Notes under the pieces: model-generated | The model's database searches: none | Told to the model about the DNA's origin: nothing | The model's input: the letters and a program-made list of their open reading frames with translations, nothing else | Position numbers and translations under genes: made by a program | Source: a virus | IMG/VR virus record: IMGVR_UViG_3300029309_000272 | Coordinates: 1 to 22,247 of that record | Direction: 5' to 3' (one strand) | DNA length: 22,247 nt | In this document: positions 130-6,100 of the stretch, piece after piece | Layout of the letters: the number at the start of each line of letters is the position of its first letter | How positions within the stretch are numbered: position 1 is the first letter of the stretch

Positions 130-3100
130 TTAACGATTTTTACTTTTTTCTTCAAGCTCTATAATTTTTTTAACTCTATCTTCTTCGTACTTAAGTGCTT
201 TAATTTGTTTATTTGTTAAGCCAAAATTTAACAACAAATTAACTTGATCTTTTTTATTCATTTTAAACAAGTCTATTTCTCTTTGCTCTGACTTGCTTGG
301 TTTGTAATTTTTAATATCAGTTAGTTGTTTGTCTATTTTTTTTGTATTTTTATTACGAAGCTCCATTATAATACTAACTCTATCTTTTTCTAATCTATAA
401 TCTTTAGGGTTTAAATTGTTTTGTTTTATTATATTTTCTTGCTCTCTTTTACTTAAATCAAATACTTCTTTTTCTTTTATAATTATATCTATTTCTTCTT
501 TAGTTTTTCCTGGATATTTTTCTTTTATTTTATCCATTTTTTTCTGTTGTTTCTTTCTTTCTTTTATATTTTCACCTAAAGCTTCTATATCTTGATCTTT
601 TATACCTAAGTCCCAAGTATTCCAACCTAGTACTAAAGCAACTCTTTGCCAAGTTTCATTTCTACTGTCTAAAGCGTTTTCTAAGTTACGTAGCTTGTTA
701 GAAAGTCTAGCTAATGGTAAATTAGTAACAGCTTCTATAACATTACCTATAGCACTAAAAGCAGGATTATCAACTTTAAAACCTCTTTCTTTCATTATAT
801 CTCTATTAAATCTTTCAGTTTGTATAGATGAATATATTTTTCTAAGCTTAGAACCAATAGGTGGTGAAAAACTAAGCGCTGCTAATATAGTATAAGTGTG
901 ATCAGGTCTAGTCATAAACTTTTCATCAAGATCTTTAGCTCTTTGTTTTTGATATTCTAACAACGTGTTTTTTAATGTAGCAACACCTTTACCACCATAA
1001 CCAAACGTTGATAACCAAGAATCAAAAATACTATTTAACATCCTTTCTTTTTTCTTTTCTTTTGCTTCATCATCTTCATCACCCATCGTAGCAAATAAAG
1101 CAGACTGTAAAGCTGTAAATAATATACCTTGTGCAATACCATAATAAGCTATTTTAGAAACATGTGTTTTAGTATCACCTCTACCATTTATAATATCTCT
1201 AAACGCCTTGTCCATAATACGACCATATTGCATAGGTGTATTCTGAAAAGATAATATCATCCTACCTAAGGCATCAGCTTGTTGCTGTGATATTAAATCA
1301 GGTCTTGCAGACTGCTGTGATACTTCTGTTATTTCTTGAAAATCTAAAAATGCTTGTTTTTCAGCTTCAAACTTAGACATACCGTCTTTCATATACTTGT
1401 TAACTCTGTTTCTATAAAAAGTAGCACCACCTGAAGCAATAGCAAAACTATCAGCTAATTGTGTAGGTAAAAATCCTATTTTTAATAAATATCTTATAGC
1501 AGCTTTAGCTTGCTCGTAAGCACCTTTACCAGTAACAGCTTCGCTTAATTCTTGTTCGTTAACACCTCTTTGATTACCAGCACGTCTTTGTTTTAAAAAG
1601 TCTGAGTTAAACAAGAAAACAAAATCTGACCAAAATTGTTTTTGATTTGCAAATGCAGCAGCTGCTTTAAGCGGATTGTTATCACTCCAGTTCATGTAGT
1701 TTATAGAAGATATAGTCTGTAATACAGCAGAACGTATGTTAAAAAACATTATAGCACCTATAGATCCGTTAACCCAGTTCATAAATTCATTAGTTAATCT
1801 ACTTTTATTTGTAGGCCTGTTTCTACCAGTTTTCATACGATATAAAACGTCTTGTAAAGCTTCTACAAATTTAGTGCCATATATAACTTTTATTTTATTC
1901 ATGTTTTCAGGGCTAAACATTTGATCTATATTTAACTGCCACTCAGCTAAATACTTAGATCTTACATCACCTAAAGCACCATCACTAAATAAATCTGATT
2001 TTATGTTTTCTGTTAACCAATACTCGCTTGGAGCTGTAAAGCTTTGTTGTTCTTTTGATATTGTACCAACAGCATCAGCAAAAGCTTTTATATCTGGATT
2101 ATTTTCTACAAATTCTGTAAGAGCCTTTGCATCTCTTTTTGTCATACCAGGTACTTCAATACCGTTTTTATTCCATAAATACACCCTAACGGCTTGATCA
2201 ACATTATAATTTTTAATATAATCAGGTGTATTTTCAAACTTTTTTAACTCGGTAGTTAATTGTTTTTTAACTTTAGGTAAACTTTTTACTAGCTCTTTGT
2301 ATTTTTCCATTGTACGTTGTCTAGCTGTATTAAGTTCGTTTATACCTTTAGCAAAAGGATCTATTAAAGTTTTCTTAAAAAACTCAAATTGTCTTTCACC
2401 AACTCTACCTTTACCTAAAAAGTTATATAATAAGCCCATAAAGTCTTGAGCAGATGGTGGCACCAAATTAAAGTACCTACCTTTTCTACTTCTTAAATTA
2501 GCTTGTACATCTGAAAAACGTTTTTGTGAATCAACGCCAGTAGTATCTTCTATTATATCATTAAACTGATCATTAATTGATCTACTAAACTTTACTTTAG
2601 CTTGTACAGACTTACCTTTAATGTCTAGCTGGTTTATTACATCAGCTACAGCTTTTACGTTGGGTAAAGCATCATCAACAAAATATATATCATTATAACC
2701 TTCTGAATATTTACCAGTTATCCAAAGTGCTTTTGCTTCACCAGTACTATTACCTAAACCAGTAATATTTTCTAACGGTATGTTTATGCCTTTTGTTTTA
2801 AGCCAACCGTGTATTGCCGTAGCGCTTGCTGGTGGCCTAGCAGTTAGTACATAGTTGTTTTTAGCACCATATTTTTTTATTCTGTTTCTAAGCTTTTGTA
2901 ATAAAGGTCCTTCGACACCGCCTCTAACATTTACAAAATCTTTAAAATCAAACTTATACCCTTGCTCTGCTAGCTTAGGACCTTTTATTGGCCATTGACT
3001 ACTAGTTATTTTTATTTCTTTACCTTGTGGACTAGTAGCTATAATAAAATTATCACCTTTATCAATTAACGTTTCATCAAAATCAAAAGCAGACATACCT

Positions 3101-6100
3101 CTAGATGTTTTACTATATTTTTCAATATTTCTAGTATTTGCAGCTGATTTACTTTGTTTTGTTAAAGCTATTTTTTCTGCAGCTTTATCTAAAGCTTGAC
3201 CAAATTCTTTAGCCACTTTAGAATCTTTAAATAAATTAACGTTAGATTTTACAAATTGATTATCATCTAACTTAGGTCTAAATCTATGATTTATAAGACC
3301 AGCATCAGAAACTTGAAAACTAATATGTACAGTTATAGCATCTGTTTCTTTGTTAAGTTGCAAAGGTATTATTTGTTGCTCTACAGGTTTACCTTCATTA
3401 AACATATCAACAGCAACTTTAGCGTTTCTATATGATTCACTATCAGTTTCCATTAAATAAGCGTTAAAATCTACTAGTAACAAACTTTGTGCGTTATTAC
3501 CAGAATAATTGTTTAAAATATAATCTCGCATTACGTAATCTAAACTAACAGTAGTATCTACTTGAAAACTATTTTTAAAAGCTTTTAATGCTTCAAACTG
3601 CTTTGATCCAACCTGTAAAGGTTTAGTAAAGTCTTTAATAGTTTCAATATTATTTTCAGCTAAAAAATTATTAACTTCTTTTCTAATTTCTAAAACTTTT
3701 TTAATAATAGCTTCTTCAAATGGTTTTCCAGTAGTTTCGTCTATAGTATTATTTTTAGTTGTAAAACTAAGCGTATCTCCTACAGCGTTTAAAGTTCTAC
3801 TAACCCATTGAGCAAAACCTCCTTTTACCTCTAAATTAAATGTAACGCCAGGATAAATTAAAGAAATATCTCCATATCCATCTGTTAACTTACCTTTAGT
3901 ATTTTTATTTACAATATCTTTACTAGCGTTTTCTAAAATCTTACCTCTAGTTTCAACTTTACCATTTTTTCTAGCTTCTTCAATACCATTTAGAAGAAAA
4001 CTATCAAGCTCTCTGTCATTATTTCTTTCATATGCACCTTCATTTCTAATCCTAAAAGCTTCTCTAGCAAATAAAGCTTTATCTTTAGTAGACATGGGTG
4101 AATTTATAGTAACTCCTTGACCAGGTACTTTAAAAACTAAATCTTTAGAATAATTTTCAAAATCTTCTTGTTTTGTTATATTATCTAACCTTAAAACTTC
4201 TTTTATATGATATGCTAAGTTTTTATCTACAACAGGCTTACTTGACTTACTAAACTTAATGCTAGGGTCTCTATTTATAGTAGCAGATAAAACTTGTATA
4301 TCTGTATCATCCATAGTTTCACCTCTTAACTCAGCCATTTGTTGTCTTTTTTCAGCAACTTCAGGTTCTTGAGCTACTTGCATTGTAGCATCATAGTTTA
4401 ATGATGCTGCTACGTATTTAGCTAATTGATCTTTTCTAGTACCTTTTAGCCCTGATCTAGCACCTGTTTTAGGATTTATAGGTGGTTGATCAAAAAACGC
4501 CATAAAATCATTTTCTTGTTTTTGATTACCTTCTATTTGTGTAACTTTTTCGTACAAAGAAACAGATTGTCCTTTGTCTATAGTGTTTAAAGCAGATGGT
4601 GGTAGTTGATTGTTATCAACAGCTTTTTGCACTTCTTTTTTACTAGTTAGTTTACTTACAAATTTAGTAAAAACTCTTTCATTATCTGGCATATTACGTT
4701 CCATCTGTACTAAATCCGCTGTAAACATAGAATTAATTAACGGTACTCTAAACTTAGTTATAGTTCCAATATATTTTCTTTTAGTACCAAGCATATTTTT
4801 AACTTGTTTGAACAAGTATGTAGATGCTTCACCAGTTAAATCTCTTTGTATTTGCCTAGCTGTTTTACCAGCATCATAAGCTCTAATTAATACTTTACGA
4901 GCTGTTTCTAATACAGCATTATAAGCGTCACTACCGTCTTCAATACCCATCGCTTGTCTAAGCTTTGACTTTGTAGGCTCTTTTTGTTTAGTTGTCTCTT
5001 GTTTTTTCTTAGCTCTAGCTTGTGGTGATATATCTTCTTCTTCAAACGTTTTAGTTCTAACATCTTCTTCTGCTGCAACTTGTACTTTTACTTCACCTTC
5101 TTTAGTTGTTTGGCCTATATCTACAGTAGGAGCTGTTGCCTGGCCTTTTGTGATACTATTATAAGCATCTTTTGCTTTATTAGCTATTTGAGCATTAATA
5201 TGCCCAAATAAACCGCTAGGATTTTTTCTTTCAGGTTGGTATTTTTTAAACCAAGGAAAAAGCTCAGCGTAAGTTGTGTCTAAAAACGTTTTGTCATCAA
5301 CCCCTTTGTGTGGTTGTTTTAAAATAAGATTATCTAATAAACCTTGTTCTTGTATTTTTTTATAAATATTTTCAGCTTCAACTTCAAAATAAGCATTTCC
5401 ACCTTTTTCTTCTAAATTTATAACGGTGCCATCTTCATCTACAATTTGTTTTCCAAGATCATTTATTTCTTTTGTTGTTTGTGCTGGCGTTAAATCTCTT
5501 TTTGTTAAAGACTTTTTTTCTATAATAGGTCCTTGTTTAACACCTTCTTGTGCCATTTCAATAAACTGCTGTCTAAACTTACCTTTTTTTCTGTCTGACA
5601 CATAAGCTTTTAAAAATGTTTTAACATCTTCTCCTGTTTTAAATTCTAAATTTTTATAACCTCTATTACCTCTATTAAATATTTTAGATAAAAACTTACC
5701 TATTTTAACTAAAACACTATCAGTAAGTTCGTTTTTTATAGCAGCATCAGCATAAGCGTTTAAATATTCTTCAGCGTATTGCTCAAAAGCTTTTTCAGAT
5801 ATTATTTTACCATCTTTATCTCTATTATACCTGTAGTTATTATCTATTCTTTTTTGTACAACTGCTTTTTCTTTTGCGTTTAAAGTACCTAAAAAATCTT
5901 TTATTAATACAGCGCCTTCTTCAGTTAAATCCGTTTCAACAGTGTTACCATTAACATCTTTTACGTTTCTAATCTTACCAGTTATTGATGACTTAACTAT
6001 ACTATGTAGTAATTCATGTGAACCTACTGTAACAGCGTTGTTTTCTGCAGCTGTTTCAACGTTAATCATTATTTCACTATCTACAACTACACCATCTACA

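What the first reader, a model, noticed from the sequence alone, without database searches (positions are those of the whole stretch)
2575..4260. Recurring [KR][FY]S[KR][ST] motif brackets two enzyme segments: possible polyprotein processing sites
KFSKS (1087-1091), KYSKT (1466-1470) and KFSRS (1642-1646) fall exactly before the nuclease-like segment, between it and the HAD domain, and after the HAD domain. A weaker RFSD follows at 1666. The codons differ, so the motif is conserved at protein level. The same chain has a predicted metallopeptidase, so self-cleavage into separate effectors after ejection is an attractive hypothesis.
Basis: partly seen in the sequence, partly recalled or inferred. 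Interest (0 to 1): 0.7.

Follow-up and report, generated by a model that had tools for sequence, protein, structure and literature searches.

The report
Cassette-border motif in phage giant protein
A phage protein thought to be injected into bacteria carries interchangeable enzyme cassettes, and one short motif marks the borders of these cassettes across many related phages, possibly as a cutting point that frees the enzymes after delivery; this matters because it gives a simple landmark for finding and testing such phage payloads.

Summary
KFSKS, KYSKT and KFSRS lie at aa 1087, 1466 and 1642 of a 2461-aa protein of a phage with a crassvirus-type tail muzzle (3 found, 0.02 expected). In 135 dereplicated homologues the refined motif [VI][KRQM][FY]S[KR] occurs 127 times against 6 expected; in other ORFs of the same loci it occurs once (2.4 expected). 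A second sample of 49, picked by a cassette instead of the motif, gave 26 against 2. Copies lie downstream of a predicted zincin metallopeptidase and where homology between relatives starts or stops, so the motif marks exchangeable cassettes. In the window it brackets a PD-(D/E)XK nuclease-like segment and a HAD phosphatase-like domain and falls in low-confidence linkers of the AlphaFold model. RFSD at 1666 is not a copy. Proteolysis is unproven: the motif is missing at one border in about 18% of relatives, and one relative with four copies has a degenerate zincin. Auto-processing of such proteins by zincins was proposed in 2017; we found no earlier report of this border motif, but the literature search was limited. 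Cassette border: well supported. Cleavage site: plausible, about 0.45.

The parts
130..7515 (-). giant multi-domain (polyvalent-type) protein, 2461 aa
   Evidence: single ORF; syntenic with virion structural proteins phi38:1 gp101 and elemoA gp21
5416..6213 (-). predicted zincin-like metallopeptidase, aa 435-700; HELLH at 6004-6018, third ligand E583 at 5767-5769
   Evidence: H, E, H and the downstream E invariant in 19 relatives; fold search inconclusive
4261..5418 (-). segment aa 700-1085 between zincin and first border motif; shared by some 30 relatives that carry different downstream cassettes
   Evidence: phmmer
4243..4257 (-). border motif copy 1, KFSKS (aa 1087-1091)
   Evidence: homology to relatives stops here; pLDDT<50
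3130..4242 (-). exchangeable cassette aa 1092-1462, PD-(D/E)XK nuclease-like; GYGD at 3868-3879, LEVKGG at 3817-3834
   Evidence: G-D, E-x-K invariant in 6 relatives; HhaI endonuclease Z 7.9 over 165 aa
3106..3120 (-). border motif copy 2, KYSKT (aa 1466-1470)
   Evidence: 65 homology starts at this site; pLDDT<50
2596..3108 (-). HAD phosphatase-like domain aa 1470-1640; DFDETL at 3067-3084
   Evidence: T4 Pnkp 3'-phosphatase Z 8.0 and other HAD folds; present in 152 of 161 relatives
2578..2592 (-). border motif copy 3, KFSRS (aa 1642-1646)
   Evidence: [FY]S kept at this border in 94 of 114 relatives
2509..2520 (-). RFSD (aa 1666-1669), not a border copy; belongs to the following domain
   Evidence: conserved block in alignments A1 and A4
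526..2586 (-). conserved C-terminal domain aa 1644-2330
   Evidence: alignment A1, hundreds of relatives
7537..10353 (-). 938-aa neighbour, position of a T7 gp15-type ejection protein (by gene order only)
   Evidence: gene order as in phi38:1 and elemoA
10372..11199 (-). 275-aa neighbour, position of a T7 gp14-type ejection protein (by gene order only)
   Evidence: gene order
12901..18693 (-). tail muzzle protein with crassvirus muzzle C-terminal domain
   Evidence: Pfam crAss_MUZ_C above cut-off; phage structural relatives

Best explanation
The giant protein is a virion cargo ('polyvalent') protein. It has a constant N-terminal part, a zincin, an exchangeable slot, a HAD domain that most relatives keep, and a conserved C-terminal domain. 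[VI]x[FY]S[KR] is a short linear motif in the flexible linkers that border the slot and the HAD domain. Cassettes are exchanged between these borders (shown by comparison). The most likely use of the motif is as a recognition site for proteolysis: after the chain is delivered as one piece into the host, the phage's zincin or another protease cuts at or near the motif and frees the nuclease-like and phosphatase-like enzymes. Shown: motif, its place, cassette exchange, linker context, zincin signature. Inferred: delivery (from gene order and structural annotation of relatives), cutting, the enzyme that cuts, its timing.
For: Motif 127 vs 6.1 expected in 135 giants, 1 vs 2.4 in 575 other ORFs of the same loci; none in the 114,501 residues before the zincin, 113 between zincin and shortly after the HAD. 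Independent sample chosen by a cassette: 26 vs 2.1. Homology ends within 10 aa after the motif start: 3.7 per site against 0.07-0.44 for control motifs; region-matched permutation 84 of 110 sites vs mean 23, maximum 40. One upstream family (28 sites) is joined to 16 downstream families, the HAD family (51) to 14 upstream ones. Edges near the N-terminus and zincin almost never carry the motif (0 of 101, 4 of 201), so it is not a general by-product of module edges. A conserved aromatic in low-pLDDT linkers suggests a partner that reads it. Zincin ligands conserved. Precedents: zincin processing proposed for polyvalent proteins (PMC5512222); CdiA toxins are released by cleavage at a conserved border motif, VENN (PMC9424206).
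Against: No cleavage observed anywhere in this family. [FY]S missing at the HAD/C-terminal border in 20 of 114 relatives, and no [FY]S[KR] in the 45 aa before the HAD in 63 of 116. L240 keeps four copies with a degenerate zincin helix (EELFH), and a few other giants have no recognisable HExxH. Fold search did not confirm the zincin fold. In crAss001 the large virion proteins gp47 and gp50 (262 and 277 kDa) were found in virions and bands of 270 and >300 kDa were seen, so cargo there is not visibly processed in the head; those are functional analogues, not shown homologues.
Confidence: 0.45

Rival explanations
1. Passive joint: the motif is the remnant of an ancestral linker that is carried along when cassettes are exchanged and is kept because it makes a tolerable, flexible joint. 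It is not cut.
For: Ser codons at the motif are AGY in 188 of 302 cases against 117 expected, which points to common descent of the copies; motif loss at one border is tolerated; copies persist with a degenerate zincin.
Against: A conserved aromatic plus Ser and basic residue is more than a neutral linker needs; third codon positions are at background while the residues are kept; edges at the N-terminal side lack it.
Confidence: 0.3
2. Docking tag: each copy binds a virion partner or chaperone and helps to pack, thread or refold the chain; cassettes bring a tag so that they are packed.
For: Motif looks like a short linear motif in linkers and several copies per chain are common; crassvirus cargo must unfold to pass the tail (PMC10172136).
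Against: No copies in the N-terminal half or in neighbouring ejection-type proteins, 0 vs 0.7 expected in the ORF just upstream, although these would need packing too.
Confidence: 0.18
3. DNA-level recombination site: the conserved element is the nucleotide sequence, used for cassette exchange.
For: Copies 1 and 3 are 13/15 identical in DNA; AGT over-used for Ser; homology edges coincide with the motif.
Against: TTT/TTC and AGT/AGC ratios at the motif equal background, so synonymous sites drift; residue -1 varies (K, Q, M, N).
Confidence: 0.05
4. Chance recurrence of a common tetrapeptide in a lysine-rich protein.
For: Loose [FY]S[KR] alone is only mildly over-represented in the window protein (4 vs 1.5).
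Against: Family-wide counts and the independent sample.
Confidence: 0.01

Closest known systems
Phage polyvalent proteins with zincin metallopeptidase (Iyer et al. 2017, PMC5512222)
   Same: Several unrelated enzyme domains in one long phage chain, zincin HEXXH plus a downstream Glu, processing by the zincin proposed, delivery with the DNA proposed
   Different: A defined short border motif is not mentioned in the passages read; here it is confined to borders downstream of the zincin
CdiA polymorphic toxins with VENN border motif (PMC9424206)
   Same: Short conserved motif separates a constant part from exchangeable effector cassettes; cleavage there releases the effector
   Different: Bacterial secreted toxin with one C-terminal cassette; no homology claimed; here several internal cassettes and a phage virion protein; cleavage not shown here
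crAss001 cargo proteins gp45, gp46, gp47, gp50 (PMC10172136)
   Same: Virion proteins expected to be ejected through a crassvirus tail with a muzzle
   Different: Homology and border motif not tested; gp47/gp50 are RNA polymerase-associated
phi38:1 gp101 and Flavobacterium phage elemoA gp21
   Same: Same gene order next to the muzzle, partial homology in the N-terminal half, annotated structural
   Different: No enrichment of the motif (1 vs 0.4 and 1 vs 0.8 expected)
Prohead-protease processed ejection proteins of giant phages such as SPN3US (PMC5694885)
   Same: Head ejection proteins that are cut at a short motif
   Different: Motif there is A-X-E, cut by a prohead protease in the head; different motif and no such protease implicated here

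Membership tests
Polyvalent proteins | several distinct catalytic domains in one phage or plasmid polypeptide | tested here: met
   zincin signature, PD-(D/E)XK-like and HAD-like segments in one ORF
Polyvalent proteins | delivered with the DNA at entry | not testable with these tools
   only indirect: gene order and structural annotation of relatives
Zincin-like metallopeptidase | HEXXH plus downstream Glu ligand | tested here: met
   H66, E67, H70, E149 invariant in 19 sequences
Zincin-like metallopeptidase | zincin fold | tested here: inconclusive
   best VIA Z 3.0 to aureolysin, a zincin, over 75 residues; nothing above Z 5; no Pfam family at cut-off for the window member
PD-(D/E)XK nuclease | D...(D/E)xK catalytic signature | tested here: met
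   G122-D123 and E136-x-K138 invariant in 6 relatives
PD-(D/E)XK nuclease | PD-(D/E)XK fold | tested here: inconclusive
   HhaI endonuclease Z 7.9 over 165 residues, Foldseek E 3.4e-3; just under the level at which Z is safe
HAD phosphatase | DxDx(T/V) motif and HAD fold | tested here: met
   DFDET at aa 1478; many HAD folds, T4 Pnkp phosphatase Z 8.0 over 116 residues; most rows of the list are HAD proteins
Self-processing polyprotein | cleavage at the motif by the cis protease | not testable with these tools
   needs proteomics or an in vitro assay; L240 with a degenerate zincin and intact motifs argues against strict dependence
Crassvirus-type tail | muzzle protein with crass C-terminal domain | tested here: met
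   crAss_MUZ_C E 8.8e-08, above the curated cut-off

The most novel reading that the evidence does not exclude
A phage delivers one long chain that carries several exchangeable early-infection enzymes and is cut at repeated copies of a single motif after entry, so that each phage can swap payloads without changing the delivery or release machinery.
Probability: 0.35. Interest if true: 0.8.

Novelty: new variant of a known kind. Interest (0 to 1): 0.6.

Why it matters
The motif gives a sequence landmark for cutting giant phage proteins of this large group into their cassettes, many of which have no known relatives, and so for finding phage proteins that act at the start of infection. It also turns the older idea that zincins process polyvalent proteins into a prediction about exact sites that a mass spectrometer can test.

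Tried and rejected
tblastn of the giant protein, of a relative's C-terminal domain and of one cassette in the phage collection: no match. Another cassette matched a P-loop kinase in myophages and in a Cyanophage PSS2 head protein; the latter has no [FY]S[KR] at all, so the motif is not universal in polyvalent-type proteins. HAD and zincin profiles against PDB sequences: nothing significant. Foldseek/VIA search with the zincin model: only weak rows, the zincins aureolysin and LTA4 hydrolase among them. A resemblance of the segment between zincin and motif 1 in L001/L003 to sigma factor region 2 was not supported by Pfam or PDB sequence search. No complete gene was found split at the motif, but this was looked at only briefly. 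Text search for the motif letters with phage terms: no paper. The Cellulophaga phage proteome paper is not held.

Full report
What was checked. Shuffling the protein's own residues gives 0.022 copies on average, and 0 of 5000 shuffles reach three. The window is part of a 28-kb virus record; its 1930-aa protein carries the crassvirus muzzle C-terminal domain. Cultured phages with a related muzzle infect Cellulophaga, Flavobacterium, Tenacibaculum and Maribacter. In Cellulophaga phage phi38:1 and Flavobacterium phage elemoA a giant gene stands at the same place and is annotated as structural.

Corrections to the finding. The codons of copies 1 and 3 are nearly the same (13 of 15 bases, all Ser AGT), so the window alone does not show protein-level conservation. 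RFSD at 1666 is part of a conserved block of the next domain, not a weaker copy.

Relatives. Four scans of viral contigs gave the loci from which 135 dereplicated giant proteins were taken, the window's included, 371,179 residues. The motif refined from junction sites is [VI]-[K/Q/M]-[F/Y]-S-[K/R]-[S/T/D]. [VI][KRQM][FY]S[KR] occurs 127 times where composition expects 6.1; in 575 other ORFs of the same loci it occurs once (2.4 expected). By region, for the 118 giants with both a zincin and a HAD hit: 0 in 114,501 residues before the zincin, 69 in 96,314 between zincin and HAD, 44 in the 230 residues from the HAD start, 5 in 79,145 of the C-terminal part. A second sample was collected with a cassette profile and filtered against the first: 49 giants, 26 copies, 2.1 expected. 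In members of that sample without a detected HAD domain the motif still stands shortly before the C-terminal domain (L210, L212, L228, L229). Of five relatives on bacterial assembly contigs, L170 and L174 carry 2 and 3 strict copies and the other three carry none.

Borders. Pairwise alignments between giants stop or start at the motif. Within 10 residues after the motif start there are 3.7 alignment ends per site, against 0.07-0.44 for control motifs of similar make-up. Against random positions in the same region of the same proteins, 84 of 110 sites have an end (mean of permutations 23, maximum 40) and 70 have a start (mean 44, maximum 59). Clustering the flanks of 251 loose sites gave 42 upstream and 60 downstream families; one upstream family of 28 sites is followed by 16 different families, and the HAD family (51 sites) is preceded by 14. 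In the window, 9 alignments end at copy 1 and 65 start at copy 2. Edges in the N-terminal part (101 clusters) carry no motif and edges around the zincin almost none (4 of 201). Some of those edges may reflect divergence and not exchange.

Conservation is strong but not strict. At the HAD/C-terminal border 94 of 114 relatives have [FY]S and 73 have [FY]S[KR] (chance 16% and 4%). Before the HAD 53 of 116 have [FY]S[KR] (chance 6%). Some of those that lack it keep part of the pattern (KIKTSKG, KIQLSSD).

DNA or protein. Serine codons at 302 junction sites are AGY in 188 cases, 117 expected from each protein's own use. AGT:AGC and TTT:TTC ratios are close to background. Copies thus probably descend from one another, yet their synonymous positions have drifted. 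This fits selection on the peptide and speaks against a conserved DNA site. Sites inherited by related phages are not independent, so the numbers are descriptive.

Domains. The segment between copies 1 and 2 has the PD-(D/E)XK signature and matches HhaI endonuclease (Z 7.9, 165 residues). The segment between copies 2 and 3 has DFDET and matches HAD folds, T4 Pnkp 3'-phosphatase among the best (Z 8.0). The model was built from only ten sequences (mean pLDDT 69.6); copies 1, 2 and 3 are model residues 28-32, 407-411 and 583-587, within the low-confidence segments 27-32, 395-411 and 573-651. The last of these is poorly modelled as a whole, so copy 3 is weak evidence. Upstream lies a zincin-like domain with HELLH at aa 500-504 and a conserved Glu at 583; these residues are invariant in 19 relatives. 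Its fold could not be confirmed. Of 78 slots scanned, seven matched polynucleotide-kinase or zeta-toxin type P-loop families and two an RNA ligase family, which together with a Pnkp-like HAD suggests nucleic-acid end repair in some relatives (inference).

Mechanism. The comparison shows a border motif for exchangeable cassettes. That the motif is read by a protein is an inference from the conserved aromatic in a linker. Against it stand the relatives that lack the motif at a border, and L240, a relative with a complete N-terminus, four motif copies and a zincin helix that reads EELFH; L194 reads EELSH with one copy; L211, L232, L234 and L082 have no recognisable HExxH. A protease acting in trans is not excluded. 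Timing is unknown; in crAss001 large cargo proteins run at about full size from virions, which would fit cutting after ejection, but these are not shown homologues.

Verdict. Observation confirmed. Interpretation partly supported: border marker well supported (about 0.95), cleavage site plausible (about 0.45). A new variant of a known kind, the polyvalent protein.

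Noticed in passing
L240 (giant ORF, about aa 995-1000) and L194: Zincin helix degenerate (EELFH, EELSH in place of HExxH) in otherwise long giants; L240 keeps four border motifs.
   Followed up: partly
L059, L116, L123 and some 80 other loci (alignment A6): A cassette of about 220 aa with EHAMPAT and NYKLIALD blocks recurs in many giants; the slot scan named no family for it.
   Followed up: partly
L014, L072, L048, L051 slots: Slots ending next to the HAD domain share a block (EAVQGNKxxFKxxFGxRFMEVNTDN); in L014 this part matches stand-alone P-loop kinases of Pelagibacter and Methylophilales myophages.
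   Followed up: partly
window 133-528 (aa 2330-2461): The C-terminal 130 residues hold two imperfect repeats (VFDLSKREQENIIKQNNL...DRVSIIMEL and LFKMNKKDQVNLLLNFGL...DRVKKIIEL), shared with about 20 relatives.
   Followed up: no
L001 and L003 between zincin and first motif: GLLDLINTYDPTKGVPLAAYINKNLPNRAIEAS looks like sigma factor region 2; Pfam and PDB sequence searches gave no support.
   Followed up: partly
window, N-terminus of the giant ORF (about 7400-7440): A run of about 12 glutamines near the N-terminus of the giant protein.
   Followed up: no
L171, L172, L175: Relatives of this phage protein sit in contigs binned as Maricaulis, Alphaproteobacteria and Woesearchaeota assemblies, probably mis-binned virus contigs.
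   Followed up: no
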